A stretch of 64,000 nt of DNA, from assembly GCF_901000735.1 (NCBI RefSeq), contig NC_081541.1:34366060-34430059 (forward strand), written 5' to 3'. The notes under the pieces were generated by a model. That model did no database searches. It saw only the letters and a list, made by a program, of their open reading frames with translations, and was not told the origin of the DNA. Both the position numbers and the translations under genes were made by a program. Position 1 is the first letter of the stretch. Each line of letters starts with the position of its first letter. This document shows positions 8,702 through 32,184 of this stretch, one piece after another. Source of the stretch: Corylus avellana. Lineage: Eukaryota > Streptophyta > Magnoliopsida > Fagales > Betulaceae.

Positions 8702-9690
8702 GGTTTCTAGTTTTTTCAGAAATGGGTTTAGGAAAATGGTGGGTTTTGTAGTTAATGGCCTGGTGCAGAGAAAGACGGCGTCGTTTTTTGTTCTGTTGTG
8801 GCTTCTTTCATTTGGGTTCTTCTTCTTCTTCCTCCTTGATCAGTGATCTTCTCTGGTTGACGATTGACTTGGGGCAGAGGACTTCTGCCACTTGAACAGT
8901 CCATCAAGTCAAGCTAGAACCTTTTTTTTTTTTTTTTTTTTCAAAACAATTAAACAACAGTGAAAAAGAAACCTAAAATTATTGAAAATGGTTCCAATAA
9001 ATGGTGGACCTTTTAGAATTTGGATTGGCCAGCACAAGAGACAATTTGAAGTGACTATACTGAAATGAAAGTACCTACTACACACCTACTACATCATTAG
9101 AATAAAGAGAAGTACCCCAAACAACAGGAACAACTTTCTTAGATTCTTCCAAAGAGTGTGCATCGTCTTTGTGTAATTGGCTTATCCACATTGTCTCATA
9201 GGGTTGCAAACACTTTGGCACTCATTCTCCAACTGTGCATTTGGTGCATGATTGTCATATATAGGGAATGAAGAGTGGAAAACCAAAACAAGCCCGCGAT
9301 TAGGGGTGGAACTACGTCGTATCCCAATTTTTACCCTAATTCCTCTAAACCTAAAATTCTAGTTTCACCTCTTTGCCTGTATTCCACGGGCACCGTCACG
9401 CATATATACAGAAGTTCCTTTAAAAGATATGTTCAGAAATTCAGACTATGGACTCTTACCCTGGACTTTATTTCAAAAAACATTGAAGCTGCTTTACAGA
9501 AATATAAGTTAAAACATGCAGGTGAGGGTGTATGAAATACAAAATGAATAGCAGCACACACACTATGTTGCTTTTGGAATTGCAAGAACAATTACATTTT
9601 CAGATAATTGAATTTCTTCTAGATTGATGGACTTCTTGAGAAACATGAAATGTTATGCAGATCATAAAATTCTTTTAGGAGGAGCTGGAG
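8702..9690. other. Spacer; edge of the tandemly duplicated SABATH unit
   Basis: The first ~85 bases are the 5' flank of the AAA-ATPase. From about 8786 (tttgttctgttgtgg) the sequence matches 24407 onward and 26700-26840, the region flanking the second SABATH gene. It therefore marks the left border of a duplicated unit. The copy at 24.4-26.3 kb is longer because of extra repeats. Open frames here are not conserved as protein. 9610-9695 is the 3' flank of SABATH-1. Confidence 0.55.
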
Positions 9691-9695
9691 AACAT

Positions 9696-12088
9696 TCATC
9701 CCTTATTCATGGAAATGATCATGTTCGTGTACTTGCCTTCCTCAACCTCCAAGTATTCTTCAAGGTTGTTGGAAAACATGTCAAACAAATCATCCATGAT
9801 CTCTTCTCCAAAACAACTTGCCAGAATTGGCTCTGCAACCACCCTTATGCTCATAGCCACATACTTTACTCTAGTGGGTTTATCAAACCCAAAGCTTTTG
9901 TTACTGTCATCCATGTTAGAATCCCAGTCCACTTCAAATGTTTCCAATCGTTGAATGTTGAAGGATCCTTCTGTTTGAATCACATCCCTAACTTCTTCTA
10001 CAGTAGGTGCATAAAATGGCAGATTGAACCTGTCCAATTTTGCCTCTTCAGCTTTTCCCTAGATAGGATTAATAGATAATGGTAAGGACATTATGATGAC
10101 CCCTAGATAGAAGCAAGAACACTAGTGCATGCTAAGGGTGACAATTCGTGTTTGGTCGGGTTCTATTAAATCACTACTTATCCCAAAAGCTTAAGCCAAT
10201 AGGAAAAGATGAATTTAATTATTTAATCAATACTTTAACATTCTCCCTCATATGTGAATTCAAACTCATTTTAATAGCTGATGAGTCAAGGTTCGAATTC
10301 ATGACCTCTGATTTTGATACTATGTTAAATTACCATTTATCTCAAAATATTAAGCTTTTAGGAAGAGATATAAATTTTATTCATTTAATCAATACTTTAA
10401 CATGTTCGGGCTGTATCGATGCATGAATATAAGACTATATACGTCAAATCTAATCTAACTCACTTAATTAAAAGGATCAAACTCAACCCTAACTGGCTCA
10501 TTTTGTATTGGGTTTGTCTTGGGTTGTAGGTAGTGTCAAAAATTGTTAGTCCCTATGTCGAGTGTAAAAGTTCGGGTCATGTCGAGGCATATATAAGACT
10601 ATATAGGTTAATTATAACATATCCATTTAATTAGACAAGTCATATCTCTTAACTAGAATCTGCTAATTTCGTGTCAAAAAGTGAAAGAAATAAAGAAAAA
10701 GAGTTTTCTGTACCTCTAGAAACATGTCATTTAGGGTGATTCCTAATAACTCCCAGATGGTGCAGTTCTTGTTGCTAGAAAAATCAGCTTTCCTGTTACT
10801 GCCCATAGCTTGAAAGGTAAGGACCATGTGACCACCAGGGACCATCTCTTGCGCACATGATCTCAGAAATGATATGAAATCCCTCTTGAAAAGATCCAAA
10901 GACGCTTTAAGCACACTATGGGGGCTTGTCTTTGCTATGTGAATGTTCCCTTTGTTTAATGGAATCCCTAATTCTCAGACAAGCTCATCAGGGACCTCTA
11001 AATGTTAAAATATTAATTAAATGATTAAATTAACATATTATTATCAACTTAAGTTTTTGAGATAAATAATGATTTAATGTAGTATCAGGAAAAAAGTTAT
11101 GAGTTTCAACTTTGTTGTGGCTGTTATTTATAACCTCATATTTCATTTCGTGTTGTTTGGTGTGGATAGAAATTTTTCTAAAACCTAGTTTATAAATTTG
11201 TCACTTATTTCTCGGTATTTGAGAAGTAGATGAACCAGGGTTGGTGATAATTTTAGTTTTCATTTTGTATTATTTGATTTTTGAGATAAATGGTAATTTA
11301 AACGTAAAATATTTACAGGATAGCATCCCATTAAAGACTCATTGTCAATTGAGTAATGCAAAATTGTTTTTTTTTTTTTTTTTCCTAAGCAAATAAGATT
11401 AGGGTACAAGGAATCAAAAAACCGAAAAAGGGTTGGGTTCCCCAACAACTAGGGGTGGGAGTTGGATAATTCGGTTACGAAAATGGGGTTTTGCATTTCT
11501 CACCGTCATTGTCGATAAAGTCGAAATTTTCATCGATTATTCCACCAACTTTTTGTTCCGTTACCGAATGGCGGTCAGTAATGTCGGTTCGGTAAGCAAA
11601 GAAATGAAAAATTGGTCGGCAAAGCCGGTCAGTGTCGGTTTGGTTATAAAATGTTATTCCGCCTACCGAACCGAGATTGTCAGAAATAGAAAAAGTCTAC
11701 CGCCTACCGGCCATCAGTTAAGCGGTGTTGATCGGTTCTTGGTCGGTAGGCGGTCGATAATCGACCACCCCTACCAACAACAAACCCAAAACATCAATAC
11801 CATGCAGAAAATAGAAACAAATAGGAAATGTGCCAAAAAAGGGCCTGGTCCTCTAGATCTTGGTCAATAGACCAGGAAATGACACCATCAAAGTTGTGTT
11901 TGGAGCAAGCCAAAGAGCTGACCAGTTTTGAAACAATAACACCCTCCTAAATTCGCCAATACTGGGCAGTTTTAAAAGGCAAAGTTTTCCAAAGATGATA
12001 CTTAAAAGATATTTATATTTTATATACTTGTAATATCTGGGAAGGTGAAAATTGGTAACCTGGGAACGCCAATGAAGACAGTAAGAAG
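9696..12088 (-). pseudogene. SABATH methyltransferase pseudogene, 3' half (SABATH-1)
   Basis: Minus-strand remains of a SAM-dependent carboxyl or N-methyltransferase of the SABATH family, paralogous to the intact gene at 27255-30201. Exon 4 (10058-9696) encodes GKAEEAKLDRFNLPFYAP to the end, MNKG-stop. Exon 3 (10995-10714) encodes NKGNIHIAKTSP and EMVPGGHMVLTF. The last 29 bases of exon 2 (12060-12088) encode LHWRSQ-like sequence and stop at a retrotransposon. Defects: a TGA at 10975-10977 replaces a Gly codon (GGA in the paralogue) in exon 3, and the copia element starting at 12089 cuts exon 2. Intron 3 (10998-12059) holds repeat debris. The 5' half lies at 19786-20336 in a contig that is apparently inverted. 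Confidence 0.88.
10164..10402 (-). mobile_element. Small TRIM-like element, ~79-bp LTRs, in a SABATH-1 intron
   Basis: Minus-strand LTR-like units at 10323-10402 (TGTTAAAG...TTTAACA when reversed) and about 10164-10240 flank about 80 bases. That interior has a decayed TAGTATCAAAAT primer site, where TGGTATCAGAGC is expected, and a purine-rich tract. Flanks ggttc and tgttc are a near 5-bp duplication. A matching relic occupies the same intron of SABATH-2 (27723-27925), so the insertion predates the duplication. Related fragments recur at 10990-11090, 15607-15790, 26336-26525, 51484-51565 and 58675-58760. Confidence 0.5.
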
Positions 12089-13127
12089 TGTTAGTTCAAG
12101 AGTTGTTAAATTGGCTGGATTTGTGTGAACAAAATATTTGTGTTTTAATTAGCTTGTTTAATTGTGCAGTGTGAAAGATAGCAAAAAATAAGCAAAATAT
12201 GTAAATCACACAGGGTCTCGTCTGAAGGCTTGTCTGCACTACGTCCGGACAAGAAGAAGGAAATCTTTCCAGAAAGCTTCGTCTGAAGTCTCGTCTGCAC
12301 CATCATCCGGACGAGATTGTTATGCAAGAAACCCGAGAGCTTTGTCTGAAGTCTCGTCTGCACCATCGTCCGGACGAGATTGATATGCAAGAAAACCCGA
12401 GAGCTTCGTCTGAAGTCTCGTCTGCACCACCGTCCGAACGAGATTGCTATGCAAGAAACTCGAGAGCTTCGTCTGAAATCTCGTATGCATCAACGTTCGG
12501 ACGCGCAGCTCCAGAGAACTAGTGTTAGTGATTTTAACCTAGTTTCATCCGAATGGTCATTCATGTCGTTCGGACGCCTAGTGCATTGCATGAAATTTCT
12601 ACGTAGAAACTAGTTCTCGTCCGGACGAGCTTACTAACCGTCCGGACACCTTGTAGCAGATAAGGTTGTTAGTATTTGAATTTGTATTTTAGCTGGACTA
12701 AGAGTCCATGGTCTATATATTTGAAACTATGCATAGATGTATAGTTACGATTTCTAATTAGGTTTTAAGATATTTTGGGCTAAGAAAGAGCTGAAGAAAT
12801 CGAAGTCAACAGGAGTTCCGGTGAAGGGAGATCACGTAGAAGGAACAGTCCAGATGTTTTGGAAGAACTACTGCGGTAGCAGATAAGTGGGTCGCTTATC
12901 TAGTATACTTGAATGTCAAGTGCATAGGTTATGTAAGTCTTCGACATTAAGATATTTCTTGTTATTCTACTAATTTAGTTGATTTCCTGGGTTTGGCTGC
13001 CCCTGAGAGGTTTTACATTTAGAACGTTGTCTAAATGGTTTCCTCTTCGTAAACAAATCTTTGTGTTCTTGATTGTTGTTTTATTTCCGCACATGATTGT
13101 TTAATTTGGAGTCGTATTAGTTTTTCA
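12089..13127 (+). repeat. 5' LTR of Sirevirus-like Ty1/copia element 1
   Basis: Begins TGTTAGTTC directly after the 5-bp target agaag (12084-12088) and ends ...GTATTAGTTTTTCA, followed by a tRNA-Met-type primer site. Its partner is the unit at 20337-21419 as drawn, which is its reverse complement apart from small changes. Inside, four ~65-bp direct repeats (about 12225-12500) and further copies carry palindromic cgtccggacg-type boxes. A TATA-like tctatatat lies at 12712-12720. Confidence 0.92.
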
Positions 13128-13129
13128 AT

Positions 13130-13141
13130 TGGTATCAGAGC
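13130..13141 (+). other. Primer binding site of element 1
   Basis: TGGTATCAGAGC, complementary to the 3' end of initiator tRNA-Met, is the usual Ty1/copia primer site. It starts two bases after the LTR end at 13127. Confidence 0.9.
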
Positions 13142-13194
13142 AGGTTCACTTGTTTGGATTTATTTCCTAAGTGTGATCCTAGACTCCTCATAAA

Positions 13195-14272
13195 ATGTCT
13201 CATACTGTTGCACCAAATTCTCTTCCCGTTTTTGACAAATCAAATTATTCTTTTTGGAAAATCCGTATGAGAGCATATCTCAAATCCGTAGATGTTTGGG
13301 ACATTGTTGAAACTGGATGGACTCCTCCGGTTAAAGCAATTGCTGAATGGACTACGAATGAAAAGAATGACTCTTCTGCAAATGACAAAGCTTTAAATTC
13401 CATATTCACATCTATCTCCATCGAAGAATTCTCAAGAATTTCTCGATGTGCGATAGCTAAAGAAGCATGGGAAACATTGGAAATTACTCATGAAGGAACT
13501 CAAGTTGTTAAAGCTTCAAAACTTCAGATGTTGGTTTCAAAATTTGAAGAGATTAGGATGCAAGAGGATGAGACATTTGATGAATTTTATTCTAAACTTA
13601 GCGTCATTAGAAACAATACTATAAATTTAGGAAAGAAAATGTCTAATGCTAAAATAATCAAGAAAATTTTGAGATCTTTACCTGCTAAGTTTATTCCCCA
13701 GATTGCAGCCATACAACAGAGTAAAGATCTAGAAAAAATGAGAGTAGAGGAACTTGTAGGTTCACTGCAAACCTTTGAGCTTTTGTTACCCCAGTCAAAA
13801 ACCTCAAAAAATGTTGCTCTCAAGATCAAAACTCCTAAAGAAAAATCTAGAGATTCATCCATTGTGGATTCAGGAGATGATGAAAAAATTGCCTTGATTG
13901 TTAGGAAGTTTCGAAAATTTTTCAAACCTAGATCTGAGAATTTTAAAGGTAGGGAACATAAAAAACTTGTGAATGCTAGACATGAAGGTAGAGAAAACTC
14001 CCAAGACAGAAATGTCTTTGATCAGAAAGACAGTTCCTCATGGTCGTAAGTGTCATGAGTGTGGAGGTATTGGTCATATCCGTGTTGATTGTGAGAATTT
14101 GAAAAAGTTAAAAGGTAAGGCATTTAATGTGACTCAAAGTAATGAGTCAGATAATGATGACTCTGAAGAAGATGAAGAAGAAAATGTTAACTACTTAGCC
14201 TTTACTGCTTCATATGATAATCAGTCATATACCTCATGTAGTGTCCCAGAATTTTCAAAGCTATTTAAATAG
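13195..14272 (+). pseudogene. Copia gag of element 1, frameshifted and truncated
   Basis: An ATG 54 bases after the primer site opens MSHTVAPNSLPVFDKSNYSFW. This is the start of a UBN2/copia-type Gag, with FWKIRMRAYL and ETFDEFYSKLS. The first frame stops at 14049. The CCHC zinc knuckle (CHECGGIGHIRVDC) lies in the +1 frame from about 13973 and stops at 14272, so a frameshift near 13960-14040 separates capsid and nucleocapsid parts. No protease, integrase or reverse transcriptase follows before the gap. Element 2 at 39061-40900 has a close relative. Confidence 0.88.
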
Positions 14273-14344
14273 ATTATTTTGATAATGATGTTATTTTAAT
14301 ATCCATTGTAGCTAAGGATTTTAATTCTTGGGAAATTTATGAGA

Positions 14345-15071
14345 GTGGTAATTAGAGAATGGTAATTGGTGAAATAATAGGATAGTAAATGGTAGGTATA
14401 AGGATGGTAGAATAAGAAGGTAGAATAGTATAGGGTAGATAGAATAGTATATGGTTGGTGAAATAGTAAAATGAGGGTATAATTGTAAATTGAAGATAGA
14501 ATGAGGGTATAATTGTAAATTGAAGGTAGAATAGTATAGGGTTGGTGAAATAGTATAGGGTTGGTGAAATAGTAAAATGAGGGTATAATTGTAAATTGAC
14601 GGTAGAATAGTGTTTGATTTTCTCCTATAAATAGAGCTCTTCTCCTTCAGAATTTTCACAACTCATCTCCTCTCCCATCTCTTGCATATATTCTTCCTTC
14701 TTCCGCTTTTTACTCGGCCTTTCTTCTTTCTAAGAGTGTTTACTCAGAACAGAGAGAGAAAGGGCGAGACCAAGCGCTACAAGAAAGAAAGAACACAAGA
14801 GATAGCGGACTTTAGAAAGTAGTTTCAAAAGATATACTAGTGGTGTTAATCATATTGGAGCAACTGGATTCCTTCATACCACTTTTAGCTTCAGTCTAGA
14901 GGTAAGTAAATTCACTACCCCTTCTAAAATTACTTCATGTCATGCTATTTATATATTCTTGTATCAAACTGTAAATGATTATTTTATTTACCTGTCATGG
15001 AGATATGTTGCATGCATGAAGGATTTTTAAAAGAATTATTTAGAAAGTTTATATTTCTTTAAATGCTTTTT
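14345..15071 (+). mobile_element. Nested LTR- or promoter-like insertion in element 1
   Basis: The gag-like sequence ends near 14345 and is replaced by tandem motifs (ggtagaatagtatagg, gagggtataattgtaaattg; 14360-14610). A clear TATA box (ctataaatagagctc) follows at about 14625-14640, then a pyrimidine-rich leader and a strong splice donor (gag|gtaagt, about 14899). This is the layout of an LTR promoter with a spliced leader. No partner LTR or target duplication can be seen because the contig ends at 15071. Family unknown. Confidence 0.4.
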
Positions 15072-15171
15072 NNNNNNNNNNNNNNNNNNNNNNNNNNNNN
15101 NNNNNNNNNNNNNNNNNNNNNNNNNNNNNNNNNNNNNNNNNNNNNNNNNNNNNNNNNNNNNNNNNNNNNNN
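15072..15171. other. Assembly gap, 100 N
   Basis: Exactly 100 N, the convention for a gap of unknown size. If the next contig is flipped, the gap should contain the pol region of element 1 and the rest of the nested insertion. Confidence 0.95.
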
Positions 15172-18100
15172 CTTTCCTATTTGTTATTTTCTCTCTTCCT
15201 GAATTCACTTTTCAACCTTCAATTCTTAGTTTATGCTATTATCATACGCTGTCAGGACAATCTTACTTCTGCCTGGCGTCAATAAGGAATGAATGTTCTC
15301 CAGCTCCTCCTAAAAGAATTTTATGATCTGCATAAGATTTCATGTTTCTCAAGGTGTCCATCAAAGCAATCAGATTCTGCATGTGGGCATAATCCAATCC
15401 AGAAGAAATTCAATTATCTGAAAATGTAATTGTTAAATATTATTTTTGTTCATCTGTTATATATAAGAAGGAACTTCATAGACCCTCCCCTGCCTATTTT
15501 AACTTGTAATTCTGTAAAGCAACTTCTCTGCTTTTTGAAATGAAGTCCAGGGTGAGATCCATAGTCTGAATTTCTAAGCATATCTTTTAAATGAATTTCT
15601 ATATGTTTAAACTAATGATTAAGTTATTAAATTTACCTATTCCTATCAACTAAAGCTTTTGGGACAAATAGTAGTTTAACATGGTATCAGAGCCACAAGT
15701 CATGGGATCGAACCTTGACTTCAATGTTCAAAGTAATGATTAAGTGGTTAAATTTGCCTCTTCCTAACAACTCAAGCTTTTGGGACAAATGTGGTGGAAC
15801 TAGAATTTTAGGTTTAGGGAGAACTAAAAAAAATTGGGGTAAAAATTGGGACACATTGAGGCTTAAGGAGTCTACAACGTAGTTCCACTCTTAAATGCAA
15901 GCTTTTTTTGGTTTTCCGCTCTTCATTCCCTCTATATGACTATGATGCACCAAATGCAGAGTTGGAGAATGACTGCCAAAGTGAACTCTCACACCTTGTT
16001 TGCACCCTCTGAGACAATGTGGATAAGCCAATTACACAAAGACAATGCATTCTTTGGAAGAAGGAAAAATTACAGTTTACCCTTCTAAAGTTGACGGTGT
16101 TTTTCAATTCGAACATCAAAGTTTCAATTTTTGCAATTTACCCCCACAAAGTTTCATTTTTTTTTCAATTTGACCAATATTATCCCAAAATTCTCATACG
16201 ATCCCTAATTTTTATTTTTTATGAAAAAATAAATAAATTTTAGCTAAGTAAAATATCGAGAAATAAGTGGGTGGTTGGACATTTTGGGGAAATTTTGACT
16301 TCGCCTTTTCTTCCTGTCGCCCCAACCCCAATCAGAATTTGAACTTTTGTGATTGCAAAATTATTGAAAACTTTGTGTTCGAATTTTGAAAATCGCTTAA
16401 CTTTAGATAAATCACTTTTTTCCCCTTAGAAGAATCGCAGAAAGCTTTTTGGGGTAATATTTTTCCCATCAATCATAACGGTGATTTACTTCCCTTCTCT
16501 ACGAATTCACCAATTGTGCACTTAGACTCATGACGGTCACTATTTTTGGCGCCTAAAACCCTATTTCTTCTTTTCGCCAATCAGCAGCATTAGCTCTCTC
16601 GACGCACAACCCGTCACTTTGTTCCCATGAACTACAACGCATTGTTACTTTGCCCACATAAACTATAACGCATTGTCACTTTGCCCTCATGAACTATAAC
16701 GCATTGACACTTTGACCGTCTGAGTTAACACCTTTGACTGATGGAATTTGAGTTTTGGACACAAAATGGTAGTTCATAGGGTCGAGTGGTACAGTTAGTA
16801 GTTCATAAGAAAAAAATGAAATTGCGTTATAATCGATGGAAAAAAAAGGTAATTATCCCAAAGTTTTTCCAATTGTTTGTGGTACTTCTCTTCTATTGAT
16901 GTAGTAGGTAGTTTTCATTTCAGTATTGTCACTTCAAATTGTCTCGTGGTGGCCAATCCAAATTCCAATAGGTCCACCATTTATTTGAACCTTTTTCAAT
17001 AATTTTAGGTTTCTTTTTCTCTGTTGTTTAATTGTTTTGAGACTTTTATATATTGAAATGCTTACCTTTTACTTGTATTAAAAAACCCATTTCTTTGAGT
17101 TAATTGAAATAAATAATAATTTTTTTTTAAAAAAAAAATGTAACTTCACTTTAGACCTCTGAATTGTCATGCAATTCAAAAAATTCCAAAAACTTTAAAA
17201 CTTCTTAATTTGGACTTATAAAATTTCAATTGCAATCAATTTAAACCTCTTGTCAAATTTAAAATGTTAAAAGTGAGACAATGGCATTTATATCCCTAAT
17301 TTTTTTATAAAATCCCAAACTTACCCTAAATTCCAAATTTTTAAAAAAATCAAAGATATTTTCGTCATTTTAGGGGTAAATCAGGAAAGTTAATGGCTAA
17401 TCTGAGAAATTGGTTCAAATTGACTGCAATTGAAAGTTCAAGAGTCCAAATTGAGAGGTTTTAAAGTTTAAGAAATCTTCTTAAATCGCGTGATAATTAA
17501 AGGGTCTATAGTAAAATTAAAAAATAAAAATAAAATAAAATAAAATAAAAAAGGTTCTAGCTTGACTTGGGACTGTTCAAGTGGCAAAAGTCCTCTGCCC
17601 CAAGTCAATCGTCAACCAAAGAAGATCACTGATCAAGGAAGAAGAAGAAGGGCCCAAATGAAAGAACCCACAACAGAACAAAAACAAAACCAAAATTATG
17701 TTATTTACTACCTTGAAGTTATTTACTACCAAAATTATGCCCCGCCACGCGAGAATCTGTTGGTTGATTGGCACAGAAGCAATGGAAAGCAGAGAAGCTG
17801 ACCGAGACAAATAGATTTGAGCATGAAGAACTAGATCTAAACCTAAATTTAAAACAAAACTATGAAAACGAAGATCAAAAGCAACTACAAAAAAGATACT
17901 GAGCATTGCTATCAGAGGAAGAAGAGGGAGAGGGACAAGGAAGGAGAGAGATTAATGTTAGGATTAACTTAATAATTTTCCAGAAGACAAAGATACAATA
18001 GGTAGGTATGTCCCATTCATGGACTTTAACTTTACATTTGCTAACATCAACAAAAAAAAAAAACACCTTTACAATTACATTCGCTAAGAGATAATTGTAG

Positions 18101-19140
18101 CTTCTCCATCTTGGTGTGTTTGCTGACTTCTTTAATTGAAGATAATGTTTTTGGTGAGTATTTGTGGGTATTAAAAATGAGATGATCACGCTAACCTTTT
18201 GGCAGGTCAAGACTCAAGAGTGCCTCGACTGTTACCAAACTAGTCATATTAGTCGCAAAAAGCTCTTCTTTTTTTTTACCCGTGAAAGCGAAGGAAATTA
18301 ACTATTTGGAGAAAATTTACAAATGACCCTCAAATTATTATGCAATTTGAAAAGATTTTTTCAAAATTTTGAAGTATCTCGATTTCATTCCTTGAACTTT
18401 CAATTTGATGCAATCTACTCACTTTCGTTAGTTTTTGGACGTTAAAAGTGATTAAATGATTTTTATACCCTTGAAACTTTTTTAAAATTTCAAATTTACC
18501 ATTAATTTCAAATTTCAAATTTTAAAAAAATAAAAAAATAAAAGAGGATAATTGAATGGTAATTTGGTCTTTTTAGTGTTTTTCGTTAGGGTTTAAAGGC
18601 AAAAATATATAGAGCTGGAGTTAATTGCATCAAATTGAAAGTTTAAGAAGTGAAATTGAGAATTTTTAAAATTTTGAAGATTTTCTCAAAACGCATGATA
18701 ATTAAAGGATTTTAAGTGAAGCTATTCCTTACTATTAAGTACATCAAAAGTGACAAAGATAACATAAAATTAAATAATTAAATAATTAAATAAATAATAA
18801 TAATAATAAAGATAAGACAGCTCAACAAAGACTTCAGGACACTGATTACTAAAAAATCTGATTTACTAATCCAATTTACCATAATAATTACTATATTATA
18901 GTCAATAGTCACCGCAATAAATATAAGCAAAGATACACACGAGACAAAAAAATTAGGAGACGATCTTTGAAGAATTCTTAAGAAGTAAAGCCACACTGAG
19001 GGTCAACCAACCTCAAAGATATTTATTATAGAAAACTTGTGTTATAGATTTATCTTACAAAATATTTTGTAACTCCCAAGACTTAATATGTAACATCGGC
19101 AAACAACTTATTCACCTCCCACCTTAGCAACTCCAAAACC
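15172..19140. repeat. Left arm of a ~4-kb inverted repeat (probable assembly artefact)
   Basis: Reverse complement of 22953-26953. Paired positions sum to 42093 from about 16607 to 19140 and to 42125 from 15172 to about 16239, so each stretch is collinear without net indels. The arm starts at the first base after a gap and its mate also starts at the first base after a gap. Between 16240 and 16606 it differs from the mate (367 versus 399 bp). Contents: a solo-LTR fragment (15172-15281), a TRIM-like repeat (15607-15790), gttcatga/cgcattg minisatellite units (16620-16700) and AT-rich spacer. Open frames mirrored in both arms look non-coding. Confidence 0.9.
15607..15790 (+). mobile_element. TRIM-like repeat with LTR, primer site and second LTR
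   Basis: An LTR-like unit ending tagtttaaca is followed by TGGTATCAGAGCC (about 15682-15694), a short interior, and a second unit from about 15725 to 15790. The same family occurs in the SABATH introns. The mirrored copy in the other arm is 26336-26525. Confidence 0.5.
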
Positions 19141-19785
19141 TCTAACTTTCTTCTACAGGAAGCACTTTTACGACCAATTTTGTCTATTACAACCCAAAAC
19201 TCTGATAACTAGATATTTTTATATGGTTTGATCGATGAAAATCAAGGAGATGAATCAAATATGTTTAGGTTCAATGGTGCTTAGAAACCTCTGTAAGAAC
19301 AATGGAAAATAGTCTATAGGTCCTATGAAAGTCCTGCCTTAATTACGAAACTAATATAGATGGGGAGAGCATTGAAGTTTTTAGACTACGTCCGCAATTT
19401 AAAAAAGGATGAGGGGCCACGCATAATGAAGCGGAGGTCACTAGTTTGAATTCCCCTCCCCCTTTTGTGCAGACATGTAAAAAAAAAAAATGAAGGGCCA
19501 AGCAATACCTTTCTTACACGTGTCATGTGATATGGGAAGCTTATGTGAGGATGGTAAACAAGATTTTCGACCAAACAGCTCTCCATGCTTTGTGTGACAG
19601 CAGCCTTTTTCTATCCGTGTTTCATGCTAATAGACAACAGCTCCAACTGGTGACTTTGTTTCATGTGACAGAAGCAGCTGATGTTTCTTCAATCTCTGCA
19701 CTTTTTGCTATATATACAAATGAACTACTCTGTTTTTGGTTAAGTTAACCAAACAGAGCTTCACAAAAATTTTCAGAGAGAGGCC
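19141..19785 (+). promoter_or_regulatory. SABATH-1 promoter region
   Basis: About 19500-19785 matches the region upstream of the SABATH fragment at 46373-46595. TATATATA at 19709-19716 lies 70 bases before the ATG, as in SABATH-2. A piece near 19386-19500 (gtcactagtttgaattcc, then an A run) resembles a tRNA-derived SINE with a B-box, but no A-box or target duplication was found. 19141-19380 resembles 36170-36330 and 43110-43230. Confidence 0.5.
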
Positions 19786-20336
19786 ATGGAAGTAAATCAA
19801 ATTCTGTGCATGAATGGAGGAGAGGGAGAAACTAGCTATCCCAGTAACTCACTCATTCAAGTCTTTCTCTCTTTCTCTCTTTCTCTCGCATGCATACACC
19901 AATTTATTTTCAATGTTTTTAATCATTTGTTTCCTTATTTTTCTTTGTGTTCCTGAAAGAGGCAATGCTCGAGGCAAAGCCAATATTAGAAGAGAGCATT
20001 GTAGAGGTGTATCTAAGCAGCTCCCCTGAGTGTCTAAATGTGGCAGACTTTGGATGTTCATCTGGACCCAACACACTGTTGCTGATTTGGAAGATGATAG
20101 ACAAAATCCATGCAACATGCCAAGAATTCAATCGAAAGGCACCCATGTTCCAATTTTTCCTTAATGATCTTCCAGGAAATGATTTCAATACCATTTTCAG
20201 GTCATTGCCAAGTTTCTATGAGAAACCAAATAAAGATAAGGGAAGTGAGTTTGGGCCTTGTTTCATTGCAGGAATGCCTGGGAACTTCTACAGGAGGCTC
20301 TTTCCTAATCATTTTCTTCATTTTGTTCATTCTTCT
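19786..20336 (+). pseudogene. SABATH methyltransferase pseudogene, 5' half (SABATH-1)
   Basis: Exon 1 (19786-19860, 25 codons) encodes MEVNQILCMNGGEGETSY and the QNS-type end NSLIQ, with donor GTCTTT. The exon-2 homologue (19956-20336) has the SAM-binding motif ADFGCSSGPNT and LNDLPGNDFN, and ends in HFVHSS where an LTR begins. Its acceptor is damaged: the paralogue has ttccag, this copy ttcctg (base 19954), so normal splicing of intron 1 is doubtful. The last five bases (cttct, 20332-20336) reverse-complement the agaag at 12084-12088. It is therefore the missing first part of the pseudogene at 9696-12088, drawn on the wrong strand because of contig orientation. Confidence 0.9.
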
Positions 20337-21419
20337 TGAAAAACTAATACGACTCCAAATTAAACAATCATGTGCGGAAATAAAACAACAATCAAGAACA
20401 CAAATATTTGTTTACGAGAGGAAACCATTTAGACAATGTTCTAAATGTAAAACCACACAAAGATTTGTTTACGAGAGGAAACCATTTAGACAATGTTCTA
20501 AATGTAAAACCTCTCCGGGGCAGCCAAACCCAAGAAATCAACTAAATCAGTAGAATAACAAGAAATATCTTAATGTCGAAGACTTACATAACCTATGCAC
20601 TTGACATTCAAGTATACCAGATAAGCGACCCACTTATCTGCTACCACAGTAGTTCTTCCAGAACATCTGGACTGTTCCTTCTACGTGATCTCCCTTCACC
20701 GGAACTCCGGTTGACTTCGATTTCTTCAGCTCTTTCTTAGCCCAAAATATCTTAAAACCTAATTAGAAATCGTAACTATACGTCTATGCATAGTTTCAAA
20801 TATATACACCATGGACTCCTAGTCCAGCTAAAATACAAATTCAAATACTAACAACCTTATCTGCTACAAGGCGTCCGGACGGTTAGTAAGCTCGTCCGGA
20901 CGAGAACTAGTTTCTACGTAGAAATTTCATGCAATTCACTAGGCGTCCGAACGACATGAATGACCATTCGGACGAAACTAGGTTAAAATCACTAACACTA
21001 GTTCTCTGGAGCGGCGCGTCCGGACGTTGATGCAGACGAGACTTCAGACAAAGCTCTCGGGTTTCTTGCATAGAAATCTCGTTCGGACGGTGGTGCAGAC
21101 AAGACTTCAGACGAAGCTCTTGGGTTTTCTTGCATATCAATCTCGTCCAGACGATGGTGCAGACGAGACTTCAAACAAAGCTCTCGGGTTTCTTGCATAA
21201 CAATCTCGTCTGGACGATGGTGCAGACGAGACTTCAGACGAAGCGTTCTAGAAAGATTTCCTTCTTCTCGTCCGGGTGTAATGCAGACGAGACCCTGTGT
21301 GATTCACATATTTTGCTTATTTTTTGCTATCTTTCACACTGCACAATTAAACAAGCTAATTAAAACACAAATATTTTGTTCACACGAATCCAGCCAATTT
21401 AACAACTATTGAACTAACA
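20337..21419 (-). repeat. 3' LTR of Sirevirus-like element 1 (contig inverted)
   Basis: Read on the minus strand it begins TGTTAGTTC and ends TTTTTCA against the target agaag. It is 1083 bp versus 1039 bp for the 5' LTR. A 57-bp tandem duplication (periods starting 20407 and 20464, tttgtttacgagagg) accounts for most of the difference. It shares the cgtccggacg-type boxes. Confidence 0.9.
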
Positions 21420-21421
21420 AA

Positions 21422-21429
21422 CTCCCCCT
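21422..21429 (-). other. Polypurine tract of element 1
   Basis: AGGGGGAG on the minus strand within aaagggggagtttg, immediately inside the 3' LTR. This is the plus-strand primer position of an LTR retrotransposon. A second similar tract (aaaaggggag) lies near 21602-21612. Confidence 0.8.
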
Positions 21430-22450
21430 TTGGCTATTCGTTGACAAAATATTAAATCAATTTACTAGACAAACTTGAAATGAGAGTTTTAACATAGTTT
21501 ATCATGTTTGTGAAAATTGAAACCATAAGAGCTGTAAAATAAGTTGAAGTTCTAAAACCACAAACAAAAGTTCTAAAAACACAAACAAAAACTTCACTGC
21601 ACTCCCCTTTTTTGTCACGAAAAACAAAGGGACTAATCTTGAGCAGGTGGATCACTTGGAAATTGCTCTTCAACAAGATTGTCTGCAACTGTGCTGGCGA
21701 CTGCAGAGGCTCCCATGAACTTGTTCTTCAAGTCATGAACATCTGTCTGCAATTGAGAGAGGATGGAAGAAAATCCTGCCATTTGAGATGTCATTGTATT
21801 CAGCTTTGTCATTACATTGTCGAGAGACATATAGACAGATGGAGTAGCGGTGTCCGAGGGTCCAGCAGTGGCAGCAGGAACAGCAGTGTCGTCATCAAAA
21901 TCCACAGTACCTCGCAATCGCATCTGACCTTTGGATCAACTCACGGTGACTTTGCAAAAGGGACCAAGGTGCTTGATGGTTGGTTCAAAAAATGGAAACC
22001 CAGAATCTTCAATGAGTGGAACGCCTGTGACTTCTGCTATTACTTCACAAGTGACCACAATGTTTACACCCCGAAGAAATGTGACAATCTGGAGAGATTC
22101 TTCGGTGTCTGGCTGTATATCCATGTTGGCATGGAATTCCCGAACCAGATTTATAAATGGACGAACGGGGGTTGAGATGAAGTAGTTCCATTGTCACTGA
22201 GTGAAAATCTGAGAGATGAGATTGAATGGATCCTCCTGAAGATCAGATAGATTTATCGGTCTTTCTGAAATAATAGTGCGGTCATGAAATCGATCCTGAA
22301 AAGCTGTCTTGGCTGACTTGTTCCGAAATTGAAATCAGGTCTTGAAGGAGGGACGGGAGAAGCAGCCTCCATTGTCTTTCTCTTTTGGGCCTTGGTCTTT
22401 GTGCGGATGGGTAATTTTCTTGAAGATGGAGATCCACTCACCATAGCCTA
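21430..22450 (-). pseudogene. Degenerate ORF between pol and 3' LTR of element 1 (env-like region)
   Basis: Minus-strand coding remnants at 22444-22253 (KRKTMEAASPVPPSRPDF), 22124-21936 (FLRGVNIVVTCEVIAEVTGVP) and 21923-21633 are broken by frameshifts and stops. The last has a heptad-like coiled-coil segment, NVMTKLNTMTSQM. Position after pol, a basic N-terminal part and a C-terminal coiled coil fit the extra env-like ORF of Sireviruses. The middle resembles the 'putative plant transposon protein' domain. Identity is inferred from layout and remembered family features. Confidence 0.5.
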
Positions 22451-22852
22451 CACACATGAATCCATATTGTATATTACCAACACAAATAACCGAAAATGGA
22501 GTACATGAAAGTTCAACGTGCATAAACATATCAAATGTTGGGAAATGAATAAGAAAGACATGTTTTGAACCAAAATCAATGTCATTCAGACAATTTGTCA
22601 AACACTTGGTGGGCAAGAAAAAATTTTTGATGTACAAATGTGGTTCCCAAGTGAATACCCATCCTAAATACATTTGACTGGAACTCAATTTTCAGTGCTG
22701 CCAATCTTAGGACACTACTTAACATAGAAATAAACACAAATCAACCAAACCAAACACACAATGTAAACCCTAATTTCGGCAGTTTGATGAAAGAAAAAAA
22801 AGAAACAAATGACTGAAATTACTTGTGCCGAGTAATGTAAACAGGAGCAGAT
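22451..22852. other. Internal region of element 1, no clear ORF
   Basis: AT-rich sequence up to the contig end. By position it should be the pol side of the env-like region. No reverse transcriptase or RNase H motif was recognised. Confidence 0.4.
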
Positions 22853-22952
22853 NNNNNNNNNNNNNNNNNNNNNNNNNNNNNNNNNNNNNNNNNNNNNNNN
22901 NNNNNNNNNNNNNNNNNNNNNNNNNNNNNNNNNNNNNNNNNNNNNNNNNNNN
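22853..22952. other. Assembly gap, 100 N
   Basis: 100 N of unknown true size. In the corrected layout this join would not exist, because the flipped contig overlaps the next one. Confidence 0.95.
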
Positions 22953-25900
22953 GGTTTTGGAGTTGCTAAGGTGGGAGGTGAATAAGTTGTTTGCCGATGT
23001 TACATATTAAGTCTTGGGAGTTACAAAATATTTTGTAAGATAAATCTATAACACAAGTTTTCTATAATAAATATCTTTGAGGTTGGTTGACCCTCAGTGT
23101 GGCTTTACTTCTTAAGAATTCTTCAAAGATCGTCTCCTAATTTTTTTGTCTCGTGTGTATCTTTGCTTATATTTATTGCGGTGACTATTGACTATAATAT
23201 AGTAATTATTATGGTAAATTGGATTAGTAAATCAGATTTTTTAGTAATCAGTGTCCTGAAGTCTTTGTTGAGCTGTCTTATCTTTATTATTATTATTATT
23301 TATTTAATTATTTAATTATTTAATTTTATGTTATCTTTGTCACTTTTGATGTACTTAATAGTAAGGAATAGCTTCACTTAAAATCCTTTAATTATCATGC
23401 GTTTTGAGAAAATCTTCAAAATTTTAAAAATTCTCAATTTCACTTCTTAAACTTTCAATTTGATGCAATTAACTCCAGCTCTATATATTTTTGCCTTTAA
23501 ACCCTAACGAAAAACACTAAAAAGACCAAATTACCATTCAATTATCCTCTTTTATTTTTTTATTTTTTTAAAATTTGAAATTTGAAATTAATGGTAAATT
23601 TGAAATTTTAAAAAAGTTTCAAGGGTATAAAAATCATTTAATCACTTTTAACGTCCAAAAACTAACGAAAGTGAGTAGATTGCATCAAATTGAAAGTTCA
23701 AGGAATGAAATCGAGATACTTCAAAATTTTGAAAAAATCTTTTCAAATTGCATAATAATTTGAGGGTCATTTGTAAATTTTCTCCAAATAGTTAATTTCC
23801 TTCGCTTTCACGGGTAAAAAAAAAGAAGAGCTTTTTGCGACTAATATGACTAGTTTGGTAACAGTCGAGGCACTCTTGAGTCTTGACCTGCCAAAAGGTT
23901 AGCGTGATCATCTCATTTTTAATACCCACAAATACTCACCAAAAACATTATCTTCAATTAAAGAAGTCAGCAAACACACCAAGATGGAGAAGCTACAATT
24001 ATCTCTTAGCGAATGTAATTGTAAAGGTGTTTTTTTTTTTTGTTGATGTTAGCAAATGTAAAGTTAAAGTCCATGAATGGGACATACCTACCTATTGTAT
24101 CTTTGTCTTCTGGAAAATTATTAAGTTAATCCTAACATTAATCTCTCTCCTTCCTTGTCCCTCTCCCTCTTCTTCCTCTGATAGCAATGCTCAGTATCTT
24201 TTTTGTAGTTGCTTTTGATCTTCGTTTTCATAGTTTTGTTTTAAATTTAGGTTTAGATCTAGTTCTTCATGCTCAAATCTATTTGTCTCGGTCAGCTTCT
24301 CTGCTTTCCATTGCTTCTGTGCCAATCAACCAACAGATTCTCGCGTGGCGGGGCATAATTTTGGTAGTAAATAACTTCAAGGTAGTAAATAACATAATTT
24401 TGGTTTTGTTTTTGTTCTGTTGTGGGTTCTTTCATTTGGGCCCTTCTTCTTCTTCCTTGATCAGTGATCTTCTTTGGTTGACGATTGACTTGGGGCAGAG
24501 GACTTTTGCCACTTGAACAGTCCCAAGTCAAGCTAGAACCTTTTTTATTTTATTTTATTTTATTTTTATTTTTTAATTTTACTATAGACCCTTTAATTAT
24601 CACGCGATTTAAGAAGATTTCTTAAACTTTAAAACCTCTCAATTTGGACTCTTGAACTTTCAATTGCAGTCAATTTGAACCAATTTCTCAGATTAGCCAT
24701 TAACTTTCCTGATTTACCCCTAAAATGACGAAAATATCTTTGATTTTTTTAAAAATTTGGAATTTAGGGTAAGTTTGGGATTTTATAAAAAAATTAGGGA
24801 TATAAATGCCATTGTCTCACTTTTAACATTTTAAATTTGACAAGAGGTTTAAATTGATTGCAATTGAAATTTTATAAGTCCAAATTAAGAAGTTTTAAAG
24901 TTTTTGGAATTTTTTGAATTGCATGACAATTCAGAGGTCTAAAGTGAAGTTACATTTTTTTTTTAAAAAAAAATTATTATTTATTTCAATTAACTCAAAG
25001 AAATGGGTTTTTTAATACAAGTAAAAGGTAAGCATTTCAATATATAAAAGTCTCAAAACAATTAAACAACAGAGAAAAAGAAACCTAAAATTATTGAAAA
25101 AGGTTCAAATAAATGGTGGACCTATTGGAATTTGGATTGGCCACCACGAGACAATTTGAAGTGACAATACTGAAATGAAAACTACCTACTACATCAATAG
25201 AAGAGAAGTACCACAAACAATTGGAAAAACTTTGGGATAATTACCTTTTTTTTCCATCGATTATAACGCAATTTCATTTTTTTCTTATGAACTACTAACT
25301 GTACCACTCGACCCTATGAACTACCATTTTGTGTCCAAAACTCAAATTCCATCAGTCAAAGGTGTTAACTCAGACGGTCAAAGTGTCAATGCGTTATAGT
25401 TCATGAGGGCAAAGTGACAATGCGTTATAGTTTATGTGGGCAAAGTAACAATGCGTTGTAGTTCATGGGAACAAAGTGACGGGTTGACCGTCTGAGCTAA
25501 TGCCTTTGATTGACGAAAATGGGGTTTTAGGCACAAAATGGTAGATCATGGGAGTCTAGTGGTACAATTGGTAGTTCATGGGGAAAGTGAAAATGCGTTG
25601 TAGTTGATGGGGAAAAATAATTACCCCAAAAACTTTCTTAGATTCTGAAGGGAAAATTACAGTTTATCCCCCCAAAGTTAACGGCGTTTTTCAATTCGAA
25701 CACAGTTTCATTTTTGCAATCCACCCCCCAAAGTTCCAAATTTTTGCGAATTTGATCAATTGTATCAAAAACTTCCTATATTGCCCATAATTTTTATTTA
25801 TTTTTATTTTTTTTTATAAAAAAATTTTAAAAAAAAAATTAATTTATAGCCACTTTTACTGGCTATCGACCGTTTTATAGCCCCAAATTTATTTATTTTT

Positions 25901-26953
25901 TCATAAAAAATAAAAATTAGGGATCGTATGAGAATTTTGGGATAATATTGGTCAAATTGAAAAAAAAATGAAACTTTGTGGGGGTAAATTGCAAAAATTG
26001 AAACTTTGATGTTCGAATTGAAAAACACCGTCAACTTTAGAAGGGTAAACTGTAATTTTTCCTTCTTCCAAAGAATGCATTGTCTTTGTGTAATTGGCTT
26101 ATCCACATTGTCTCAGAGGGTGCAAACAAGGTGTGAGAGTTCACTTTGGCAGTCATTCTCCAACTCTGCATTTGGTGCATCATAGTCATATAGAGGGAAT
26201 GAAGAGCGGAAAACCAAAAAAAGCTTGCATTTAAGAGTGGAACTACGTTGTAGACTCCTTAAGCCTCAATGTGTCCCAATTTTTACCCCAATTTTTTTTA
26301 GTTCTCCCTAAACCTAAAATTCTAGTTCCACCACATTTGTCCCAAAAGCTTGAGTTGTTAGGAAGAGGCAAATTTAACCACTTAATCATTACTTTGAACA
26401 TTGAAGTCAAGGTTCGATCCCATGACTTGTGGCTCTGATACCATGTTAAACTACTATTTGTCCCAAAAGCTTTAGTTGATAGGAATAGGTAAATTTAATA
26501 ACTTAATCATTAGTTTAAACATATAGAAATTCATTTAAAAGATATGCTTAGAAATTCAGACTATGGATCTCACCCTGGACTTCATTTCAAAAAGCAGAGA
26601 AGTTGCTTTACAGAATTACAAGTTAAAATAGGCAGGGGAGGGTCTATGAAGTTCCTTCTTATATATAACAGATGAACAAAAATAATATTTAACAATTACA
26701 TTTTCAGATAATTGAATTTCTTCTGGATTGGATTATGCCCACATGCAGAATCTGATTGCTTTGATGGACACCTTGAGAAACATGAAATCTTATGCAGATC
26801 ATAAAATTCTTTTAGGAGGAGCTGGAGAACATTCATTCCTTATTGACGCCAGGCAGAAGTAAGATTGTCCTGACAGCGTATGATAATAGCATAAACTAAG
26901 AATTGAAGGTTGAAAAGTGAATTCAGGAAGAGAGAAAATAACAAATAGGAAAG
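22953..26953. repeat. Right arm of the ~4-kb inverted repeat; spacer between SABATH genes
   Basis: Reverse complement of 15172-19140. 22953-24150 is also a diverged direct paralogue of 36410-37330 and 43310-44625. 24407-26340 is the expanded counterpart of 8786-9320. 25487-25885 replaces 16240-16606 of the other arm. Around 25380-25490 there are units of gcgttatagttcatg-type repeats. No gene is convincing. Confidence 0.88.
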
Positions 26954-27257
26954 AGAAAGCTCCTAATTGCCCTAAATAAGCAAACAGAAAAATAGCTCTG
27001 AAAGACTTAAATTTAATTGATAGTGTAAACTAAATTGAAAAATAACAAAGACTAGATGCCTTTATATAGGCTAGGCACCTCCTAAATTAACAAGAAAAAG
27101 GAAAACCAAACATAATTGGAAAATGAAATCAAATCCTAATAGGAAAAGTAAAACCAATCCTAATAGGAAAGGAAAAACTCAATCCTTATTGAAAAAGGAA
27201 AACTAAAACACACATACATAATTAAAATAACAATTTTTTCAAATTTCTCCTGCATCA
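26844..27257. mobile_element. Solo LTR inserted at the 3' end of SABATH-2
   Basis: 414 bp starting TGACGCCAGG and ending CCTGCATCA, flanked by perfect 5-bp duplications cttat (26839-26843 and 27258-27262). The empty site is seen in SABATH-1 at 9691-9712. The interior has caatcctaataggaaa repeats. No interior retroelement sequence is present, so it is a solo LTR or a very small element. On the gene strand its first bases, TGA, act as the stop codon of SABATH-2. Confidence 0.85.
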
Positions 27258-28111
27258 CTTATTCATGGAAACGATTATGTTCGTGTACTTGGCTTCCTCA
27301 ACCTCCAAGTATTCTTCAATGTTGTTGGAAAACATGTCAAACAAATCATCCATGATATCTTCTCCAAAATAACTTGCCAGAATTGGCTCTGCAACCACCC
27401 TTATGCCTATTGCCACATACTTTCCTCTACTGGGTTTATCAGACCCAAAGCTTTTGTTACTGTCATCCATGTTAGAATCCCAGTCCACTTCAACTGTTTC
27501 CAATCGTTGAATGTTGAAGGATCCTTCTGTTTGAATCACATCCCTAACTTCTTCTGCAGTAGGTGCATAAAATGGCAGATTGAACCTGTCTAATTTTGCC
27601 TCTTCAACTTTTCCCTGGATAGGATTAATAGATAATGGTAAGGACCTTATGATAACCCCTAGATAGAAGCGAGCACACTAGTGCATGCTAAGGGTGACAA
27701 TTCGTGCTTGTCTGTCGAGTTCTGTTACATCATTACTTATCTCAAAAGTTTAAGATGATTGAAAAAGAAGAATTTAATCATTTAATCAATACTTTAACAG
27801 CCCCTCACGTGTGGGCTTACATTTATTTTAATAGGTGAGGAATCATTGTTCAAAATAATCTTTGATTCTGATATTATGTTAAATCACTACTTATCCCAAA
27901 ATTTTAAGCTCTTAGGAAAATAAATAAATTTAAGGGTTAAATACTCTTTTGCCCCCTAGGGTTTGAAGATTTTATTTTTTCTTTCTTAGGGTTTCATTTT
28001 TATCACAAGAGGTACATGTGGTTTCATAAAGACCAAGCTAGTACATCCATTAAAATTCTGTCCAAAACTTAACAGAACGCCATGTCAGCACCAATCAGAT
28101 GTCACCACATG

Positions 28112-28146
<35 letters not shown>

Positions 28147-30201
28147 TTCATAACTTATCCATTTAATTAGACAAGTCAGAACTTTTAACTAAAATCTGAT
28201 AATTTCGTGTTGAGTTCATGTAAAAACTAAGAGAAATAAAGAAAAAGAATATCGTGTACCTCTAGGACCATGTCATTTAGGGTGATTCCTAATAACTCCC
28301 AGATGGTGAAGCTCTGATTGCTAGAAGAATCAGCTTTTCTGTTACTGCCCATGCCTTGAAAGGTAAGGACCATGTGACCACCGGGGACCATCTCTTGCGC
28401 ACGTGATCTCAGAAATGATGTGAAATCCCTCTTGAAAAGATCCAAATACGCTTTACGCACTCCATGGGGGCTTGTCTTTGCGATGTGAATATTCCCTTTG
28501 TTTAATGGAACTCCTGATTCTCCGACAAGGTCAGGGATCTGTAAATGTAAAATTATTAATTAAATAATTAAATTAATATATTATTATCGATTTAAGTTTT
28601 TAAAATAAATGATGATTTAATGCGGTATCAGAAAAAGTTCTAAATTTTAACCTTAAATGTTATTTACCTCGTATTTCATTTCGTGTTGTTTGGTATGGAT
28701 ATAAATTTTTAAAAATCTAGTTTATAAATTTGTCACGTATTTCTCAGCATTTAACAAGTACCAAGGTACGTTGGTGATAATTTTAGTTCTCATTTCGTGT
28801 TATTTGATTTTTTTAGATAAATGGTAATTTAACCATAAATATTTACATGAAAGCATCGCATTAAATACTCATTGTCAATTGAGTAATGCAAAATTGTTTT
28901 ACTTTTTTTTTTTTTCTCTAAGCAAATAAGATTATGGTACAAGGAATAAAAAAAAAAAAATCGAAAACTGGTTGGACTCCCTAACAACAAACCCAAAACA
29001 TCAATACAATGCAAAAAATACAAACAAATAGGAAATAGGCTAAAAAATGGTCCGGTCCTCTAGATCTTGGTTAACAAACCAATAAATTACACCATTAAAG
29101 AGGTGTTTGAAGCAAGTCAAAGAGCTGACTATCTCTGAAATAATAACACTCTCCAAAAGAAGGCTGTTGAAGAAGAGGCACTGAAATCATTTCGTTGGAA
29201 AAACAAAATTATAAGTAACCTATTCTCTTTTTCCTCAACAAATTATAAAGTAATTGGACTAGGATTTGTGATCAACCTTTTGAAAGGAGAAATCAACCAT
29301 ACGCATCTCAATTATCACCTAAAATGAACTGTCCCAAAAATGATAACTTTTTTTTTTTTTTTTGGTTCAATGCAGGGAAGAGAAAGGAATTATAAAAAAG
29401 TAAAAAACAAAATGCCACATAGCCTTCCTAAGAACCGTTAGAAATGAGTCAAATAAGTTGCTCGGCCCATTGGCCCATCAAATGATCCAATACCGAGATG
29501 GTTTTAAAAGGCAAAGTTTCCCAAAGATGATACTTAAAAGATATATATTTTATGTACTTCTAATATCTTCGACCCAGCAAACAAAAAAAAAAAAGATGAT
29601 GAAGGAAAAAACTGTTAACCTGGGAACGCCAATGAAGACAGTAAGAAGAATGAACAAAATGAAGAAAATGATTAGGAAAGAGCCTCCCGTAGAAGTTCCC
29701 AGGCATTCCTGCTATGAAACAAGGCCCAAACTCACTTCCCTTATCTTTCTTTAGTTTCTCATAGAAACTTGGCAATGACCTGAAAATGGTATTGAAATCA
29801 TTTCCTGGAAGATCATTAAGGAAAACTTGGAACATGGGTGCCTTTCGATTGAATCCTTGCGATGTTGCATGGATTGTGTCGATCATCTCCCAAATCAGCA
29901 ACAGTGTGTTGGGGCCAGATGAACATCCAAAATCTGCCACATTTAGACACTCAGCGGAGCTGCTTAGATACACCTTTGCTATGCTCTCTTCTAATATTGG
30001 CTTTGCCTTGAGCATTGCCTCTTTCTGGAACACATTGAAAATAAGGAAACAAATGATTAAAAACATTGAAAATAAATTGGTGTATGCAAGCGAGAGAAAA
30101 AGAGAAAGAGAGAAAGAGAGAAGGACTTGAATGAGTGAGTTGTTCGCATAGCTAGTTTCTCCCTCTCCTCCATTCATGCACAGAATTTGATCTACTTCCA
30201 T
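27255..30201 (-). CDS. SABATH-family SAM-dependent methyltransferase (SABATH-2), intact
   Basis: Transfers a methyl group from S-adenosylmethionine to a carboxyl or ring nitrogen of a small metabolite. The family includes salicylate, benzoate, jasmonate, IAA, gibberellin and caffeine-pathway enzymes. Four exons: 30201-30127, 30024-29620, 28538-28260, 27614-27255. They total 1119 nt, giving 372 aa, within the family range. Exon 1 has MNGGEGETSYANNSLIQ. The SAM site ADFGCSSGPNT is at 55-65, LNDLPGNDFN at 94-103 and the substrate-pocket motif HSSYCLHW at 150-157. EMVPGGHMVLTF is in exon 3 and LDRFNLPFYAP in exon 4. Junctions are gttccag, tttacag and atccag acceptors with GTCCTT, GTTAAC and GTACAC donors. 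The stop is supplied by an inserted solo LTR, ending the protein at ...MNK instead of ...MNKG. The substrate cannot be told from sequence. It is the tandem partner of the SABATH-1 pseudogene. Confidence 0.92.
27723..28145. repeat. Intron 3 repeats of SABATH-2: TRIM relic, half MITE, (AT)n
   Basis: 27723-27925 is the relic TRIM shared with the SABATH-1 intron. About 27935-28110 (gggttaaatactcttttgcc onward) is one arm of the fold-back family at 32498-33056. 28115-28143 is an AT microsatellite. Confidence 0.55.
28539..29619 (-). other. SABATH-2 intron 2
   Basis: 1081-bp intron homologous to 10998-12059 in SABATH-1. It contains AT-rich repeat debris, A/T runs and a segment near 28920-29060 (aagcaaataagattatggta onward) that also occurs at 11385-11830 and, in part, at 46320-46370. 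No gene seen. Confidence 0.6.
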
Positions 30202-30310
30202 GGCCTCTCTGTGTGGATTCTCTATGATCAATCCTGTGAAAGATTTTGTGAAGCTCTGTTTGGTTAACTTAACCAAAAACAGAGTAGTTTATTTGTATAT
30301 ATAGCCAAAG
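30202..30310 (-). promoter_or_regulatory. SABATH-2 leader and TATA box
   Basis: TATATATA at 30296-30303, about 95 bases upstream of the ATG, in the same context (gccaaagtgca/ctatatata) as the other SABATH copies. Homology to the other SABATH promoters stops near 30310, so this copy has lost or replaced its upstream promoter region. Confidence 0.6.
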
Positions 30311-30409
30311 TGCGTAGTCTTTTACATGAAACATGTTAATTGAGACTATTATAACAGTTTTCAACACTGTCGGCTGTGTGCTCTTCGGGACTGTGCGCTC
30401 TTCAGGGCC

Positions 30410-32174: not shown

Positions 32175-32184
32175 TTATTCTTTT

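What the first reader, a model, noticed from the sequence alone, without database searches (positions are those of the whole stretch)
15172..22852. Contig placed backwards: the 4-kb inverted repeat is a dovetail overlap
The first ~3969 bases of this contig are the reverse complement of the first ~4001 bases of the next contig. Both matches stop exactly at N gaps, as expected when two overlapping contigs are placed in opposite orientation and not merged. Flipping the contig would also turn the two SABATH copies head-to-tail. A separate LTR and target-site argument supports the same conclusion. Annotators of this scaffold would otherwise report a palindrome, a split gene and a truncated retroelement.
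Basis: partly seen in the sequence, partly recalled or inferred. Interest (0 to 1): 0.92.

Follow-up and report, generated by a model that had tools for sequence, protein, structure and literature searches.

The report
Backwards contig mimics a DNA palindrome
A 7.7-kb piece of a hazelnut-like chromosome sequence was put in back to front beside a piece it overlaps, so the 4-kb mirror-image repeat there is most likely a mistake of genome assembly and not a feature of the plant.

Summary
Observation confirmed, with one correction; interpretation supported. Contig 2 (15172-22852) and contig 3 (22953-35258) share about 4 kb in opposite orientation, ending to the base at the two N gaps.

The overlap alone cannot separate a flipped contig from a true palindrome. 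Two further lines do. (1) A Copia-type retroelement has its 5' LTR and primer site in contig 1 and its polypurine tract and 3' LTR in contig 2. They form one element, with AGAAG on both sides, only if contig 2 is reversed. (2) Contig 3 carries the matching empty site: contig 1 aligns up to 29648 and reversed contig 2 from 29644; the 5-bp overlap is AGAAG itself.

So the order is contig 1, gap, reversed contig 2, merged with contig 3. The gene is a SABATH methyltransferase tandem pair; copy 1 really is broken by the retroelement, copy 2 is intact and identical to a Corylus avellana protein. This is an ordinary false duplication at a contig border, in inverted form. No reads could be mapped.

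The parts
15072..15171 (.). 100-N gap; true neighbours inferred to be 15071 and the 22852 end of contig 2
   Evidence: adjacency
15172..22852 (-). contig 2, inferred to be placed in reverse orientation
15172..19140 (-). arm of the false inverted repeat on contig 2 (the overlap)
22953..26953 (+). arm of the false inverted repeat on contig 3 (the overlap)
16241..16606 (-). 366-bp block that differs between the overlapping contigs (contig 2 version)
25487..25884 (+). 398-bp block that differs between the overlapping contigs (contig 3 version)
25231..26065 (+). hairpin-like repeat holding the differing block: two adjacent self-complementary stretches of about 400 bp, about 70% each
22853..22952 (.). 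100-N gap; inferred to be a false junction
12084..12088 (+). target-site duplication AGAAG, left side, contig 1
12089..13127 (+). 5' LTR (TG...CA, 1039 bp)
13129..13144 (+). primer-binding site TTGGTATCAGAGCAGG (tRNA-Met type, recalled)
13183..14049 (+). copia-type gag ORF (Pfam PF14223)
21422..21431 (-). polypurine tract AAAGGGGGAG just before the 3' LTR (assigned by eye)
20337..21419 (-). 3' LTR (1083 bp), 37 substitutions in 1027 aligned positions against the 5' LTR
20332..20336 (-). target-site duplication AGAAG, right side, contig 2 read reversed
29644..29648 (+). empty target site AGAAG in the tandem copy on contig 3
19786..20336 (+). SABATH copy 1, exon 1 and first part of exon 2, as drawn on contig 2 (start counted by hand)
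9696..12088 (-). SABATH copy 1, rest of exon 2 to last exon, on contig 1; in-frame stop in exon 3
27255..30201 (-). SABATH copy 2, four exons (splice sites assigned by eye), intact, 372 aa

Best explanation
Contig 2 was joined to its neighbours in the wrong orientation. Its first 3969 bases and the first 4001 bases of contig 3 are the same stretch of chromosome (possibly in part its allele, see the second rival), assembled twice at two overlapping contig ends and never merged. Read reversed, contig 2 begins inside the copia-type retroelement that contig 1 ends in, carries that element's 3' LTR and the first exons of SABATH copy 1, and runs into contig 3 by the overlap. Shown here: the overlap geometry, the LTR pair with matching target duplication, and the empty site. 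Inferred: that it happened while scaffolding short contigs, and that the differing block is a local consensus error in a hairpin-like repeat.
For: Each arm has one end exactly at a gap edge, with 0 differences in 3603 bp outside one block. LTR orientation, primer site, polypurine tract and 5-bp target duplication form one element only with contig 2 reversed. Empty site: contig 1 aligns to contig 3 up to 29648 and reversed contig 2 from 29644, overlapping by exactly AGAAG; the inner parts of the element, 13128-15071 and 21420-22852, gave no hit in contig 3. Strand tally of inter-contig BLAST rows (E<=1e-20, 46 rows): without contig 2, 21 direct and 3 inverted of 24; with contig 2, 19 inverted and 3 direct of 22. 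The 3 inverted are contig 1 v contig 5: two retroelement rows and one short repeat. The 3 direct are two hairpin self-matches and one LTR row. The 19 are not independent: 10 lie wholly in the overlap arm (2 of them the overlap itself), 2 straddle its border, 7 lie outside it (5 of these are LTR rows). Dovetail overlaps at contig borders are a described error class (PMC8081667, passages), and short contigs are harder to orient by Hi-C (PMC7672694 and PMC6719893, passages).
Against: The overlap is not identical throughout: 366 bp face 398 bp of partly unrelated sequence. No read depth, long reads or Hi-C contacts were available.
Confidence: 0.96

Rival explanations
1. A real, very recent inverted duplication: two 4-kb arms with a 3.7-kb spacer, with contigs broken at the repeat borders.
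For: Assemblers do break at repeat borders (recalled), so arm ends at gaps are not by themselves decisive; the differing block could be a later change.
Against: As drawn, the retroelement has two half-elements with inverted LTRs and a 5-bp target duplication shared by chance (about 1 in 1000), and the collinear empty site on contig 3 is unexplained. Zero changes in 3603 bp next to a block that aligns only in part, at 71%, is odd for decay of a duplicate.
Confidence: 0.02
2. Contig 2 comes from the other haplotype: a heterotype false duplication, also placed backwards. This is a sub-case of the best explanation (the flip is still right, and its odds are contained in the 0.96), but the overlap is allelic.
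For: The 366/398-bp block could be an allelic difference; hazel is highly heterozygous (1.27% in 'Jefferson', PMC11152071, passage).
Against: At 1.27% about 46 differences would be expected in 3603 bp, and 0 are seen; local identity by descent could explain this.
Confidence: 0.08
3. A fold-back chimera from a single long read (missed adapter or template switch) gave the mirror repeat.
For: Such reads make near-perfect palindromes (recalled, not looked up).
Against: The arms lie in two contigs, each continuing into different sequence (19141-22852 and 26954-35258), and the reversed order is independently required by the empty site.
Confidence: 0.01

Closest known systems
[quoted passage not shown]
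   Same: The same locus is assembled at two contig ends that dovetail, left unmerged with a gap in the scaffold.
   Different: The described form gives a tandem duplicate from a branch of the graph; here the contig is also reversed, so it looks like an inverted repeat, and a 366/398-bp block differs.
Short-contig orientation error in Hi-C scaffolding (PMC7672694 and PMC6719893, passages)
   Same: A 7.7-kb contig in the right place with the wrong orientation.
   Different: Which scaffolder or data made these joins is not known here.
Copia-type LTR retrotransposon
   Same: TG...CA LTRs, primer site, polypurine tract, 5-bp target duplication, gag PF14223.
   Different: No pol domain was found in the little that was scanned; the middle lies in the gap.
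SABATH carboxyl methyltransferases (PF03492)
   Same: Copy 2 is a full-length member; best solved-structure matches are xanthosine and salicylate methyltransferases.
   Different: Copy 1 is a pseudogene. The substrate of copy 2 is not known.

Membership tests
Homotype false duplication at contig boundary | Duplicate lies at contig ends and stops at gaps | tested here: met
   Each arm begins at the first base after a gap
Homotype false duplication at contig boundary | Suffix-prefix (dovetail) geometry after choosing orientation | tested here: met
   Reversed contig 2 ends where contig 3 continues; 2534 + 1069 bp exact, apart from a 366/398-bp block
Homotype false duplication at contig boundary | Single-copy read depth or k-mer excess in the assembly | not testable with these tools
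   No reads available
Contig orientation error | Independent features become continuous on flipping | tested here: met
   LTR pair with target duplication and empty site
Contig orientation error | Reads or Hi-C contacts support the flipped order | not testable with these tools
   No reads available; the own-genome search did not complete
Copia-type LTR retrotransposon | Paired direct LTRs, target duplication, primer site, polypurine tract | tested here: met
   with contig 2 reversed; primer site and polypurine tract assigned by eye
Copia-type LTR retrotransposon | Copia-type gag | tested here: met
   PF14223 E=2.9e-26 for 13183-14049
Copia-type LTR retrotransposon | pol with integrase before reverse transcriptase | tested here: inconclusive
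SABATH methyltransferase | PF03492 over the whole profile | tested here: met
   E=2.2e-123, residues 39-372 of copy 2, profile 2-335 of 335

The most novel reading that the evidence does not exclude
The 366-bp and 398-bp versions of the block inside the otherwise identical overlap are both real alleles: a hairpin-like element whose core was swapped, by gene conversion from a diverged copy or by hairpin-driven repair, with no change in 2.5 kb and 1.1 kb on either side.
Probability: 0.07. Interest if true: 0.3.

Novelty: not a real feature. Interest (0 to 1): 0.12.

Why it matters
If right, it removes a false 4-kb palindrome, a false extra partial copy of the locus, and a false inverted retroelement from this scaffold, and makes one SABATH pseudogene out of two unconnected pieces. 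It also shows a cheap check that needs no reads: a retroelement split by a gap, with its empty site in a tandem paralogue, can fix contig orientation to the base. Biologically the locus is ordinary: a SABATH tandem array with one copy broken by a retroelement.

Tried and rejected
Exact suffix-prefix overlaps of 15 bases or more between different contigs in either orientation: none was printed, because the differing block breaks the contig 2 / contig 3 one. The differing block as an inversion: disfavoured, the best matches between the two versions are in the same sense. A paralogous source of either block elsewhere in the window: none seen beyond the other version, the hairpin-like element itself and short, mostly low-complexity matches. 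Hairpin strength: the contig 3 version of the element folds at -355 kcal/mol in 835 nt, the contig 2 version at -204 in 803 nt (RNA parameters, no shuffled control); this suggests the contig 3 version is the natural one but proves nothing. A truncated hazel protein from the contig 2 piece of copy 1: 188 proteins passed, 120 were listed, and none of those that bear an organism name is Corylus; many rows bear none. The assembler: the paper for the 'Tombul' cultivar is not held and did not appear in the listings I saw (15 of 19, 1 of 1 and 10 of 12 papers), so which assembly and pipeline this is remains unknown. That a 20-N gap is a mark of Celera-type assemblers is recollection only.

Full report
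The window holds five contigs: contig 1 (1-15071), contig 2 (15172-22852), contig 3 (22953-35258), contig 4 (35279-37330) and contig 5 (37431-64000), separated by gaps of 100, 100, 20 and 100 N. Contig 2 15172-19140 and contig 3 22953-26953 match on opposite strands, each starting at the first base after a gap. Two runs are exact: 2534 bp and 1069 bp. Between them 366 bp of contig 2 (16241-16606) face 398 bp of contig 3 (25487-25884); about 250 bp of these align at 71%, and no alignment was found for the rest. Apart from the two runs the longest exact inverted match in the window is 80 bp.

The geometry is a dovetail: the end of reversed contig 2 overlaps the start of contig 3. By itself this does not exclude a real palindrome, because the same contigs could come from an assembly graph broken at repeat borders. 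Features outside the overlap decide it.

First, the retroelement. Contig 1 has an LTR at 12089-13127, starting TG and ending CA, followed by TTGGTATCAGAGCAGG, a tRNA-Met-type primer site (type recalled), and a copia-type gag ORF at 13183-14049 (PF14223, E=2.9e-26). Contig 2 read in reverse has a polypurine tract and then an LTR from 21419 to 20337. The LTRs differ by substitution at 37 of 1027 aligned positions. The 5 bp before the first LTR and after the second are both AGAAG. In the drawn orientation the two LTRs are inverted and no ordinary element results.

Second, the empty site. In one search contig 1 8000-12088 gave 14 rows against contig 3: 8 are collinear, from 8785/24409 to 12088/29648, and 6 are short off-diagonal repeats. 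Contig 2 20336-19698, read in reverse, gave one row, contig 3 29644-30313. The two alignments meet in 29644-29648, which reads AGAAG: the unduplicated target. Around the junction the alignment is without mismatch for dozens of bases. The inner parts of the element (13128-15071 and 21420-22852) gave no row against contig 3. So contig 1 and reversed contig 2 are the two halves of one tandem copy that took a retroelement insertion, and contig 3 holds the sister copy without it. This does not use the overlap at all.

Third, orientation in general. Among 46 inter-contig BLAST rows at E<=1e-20, the 24 without contig 2 are 21 direct and 3 inverted; the 22 with contig 2 are 19 inverted and 3 direct. 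The exceptions are the retroelement family (2 inverted contig 1 v contig 5 and 1 direct contig 2 v contig 5, consistent with each other after the flip), one short contig 1 v contig 5 repeat, and two self-complementary matches of the hairpin-like element. The 19 rows are not independent: 10 lie wholly in the overlap arm, two of these being the overlap itself; 2 straddle its border; 7 lie outside it, 5 of them LTR rows. The tally is therefore only supporting evidence.

The gene is a SABATH carboxyl methyltransferase. Copy 2 (30201 down to 27255, four exons) reads through as 372 aa with PF03492 at E=2.2e-123. It is identical over 372 of 372 residues to a Corylus avellana protein named probable jasmonic acid carboxyl methyltransferase 2, on a 50.95-Mb record. 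The window is therefore most likely from European hazel or a close relative; which assembly is not established. Copy 1 is broken by the retroelement in exon 2, has an in-frame stop in exon 3, and appears to have lost a splice acceptor. A further first-exon-like stretch lies at 46374-46939 on contig 5. Thus the flip makes copy 1 one locus, but not an intact gene.

The differing block lies in a hairpin-like element (25231-26065 on contig 3) made of two adjacent self-complementary stretches, absent at the matching place on contig 1. The contig 3 version keeps both hairpins; in the contig 2 version most of the self-complementarity is lost. With no change in 3603 flanking bases, a local consensus or gap-fill error in a hairpin seems most likely to me; real alleles are not excluded. 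With the 1.27% heterozygosity reported for 'Jefferson' (PMC11152071, passage) about 46 differences would be expected in 3603 bp between haplotypes.

Known kind. The VGP paper describes homotype false duplications in which contigs overlap at their boundaries by dovetailing and scaffolding leaves a tandem duplicate with a gap (PMC8081667, passages). Papers on Hi-C scaffolding say that short contigs are harder to orient (PMC7672694 and PMC6719893, passages). This case looks like the two errors together, though that Hi-C was used for these joins is inference. I did not search for a report of this locus.

Verdict: a correct catch of an ordinary assembly artefact. The palindrome is most likely not a real feature. 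Confidence 0.96 without reads.

Noticed in passing
16241-16606 and 25487-25884: Two different versions of one block inside an otherwise 100% identical overlap, in a hairpin-like repeat; error or alleles not settled.
   Followed up: partly
34700-34965 and 35279-35542: The 20-N gap at 35259-35278 lies near a 266-bp direct repeat at 93% identity whose second copy starts at the gap edge; it may be another unmerged overlap or a tandem repeat.
   Followed up: partly
37431-37732 and 41544-41845: Contig 5 starts inside what looks like an LTR: a direct repeat at 98.7% identity flanks a copia-type gag element, and the repeat is cut by the gap 37331-37430.
   Followed up: partly
35920-37330 and 42822-43990: The 2-kb contig 4 is largely an 87-90% copy of part of contig 5; its placement is also uncertain.
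   Followed up: no
1618-2795: Open frames that look like a plant bifunctional dihydrofolate reductase-thymidylate synthase (recognised by eye, not searched).
   Followed up: no
6313-8839 (minus): Open frames that look like an AAA-ATPase of the BCS1-like type (by eye, not searched).
   Followed up: no
47670-48383 and 54245-54937 (minus): Two related ORFs of unknown function, another repeated pair.
   Followed up: no
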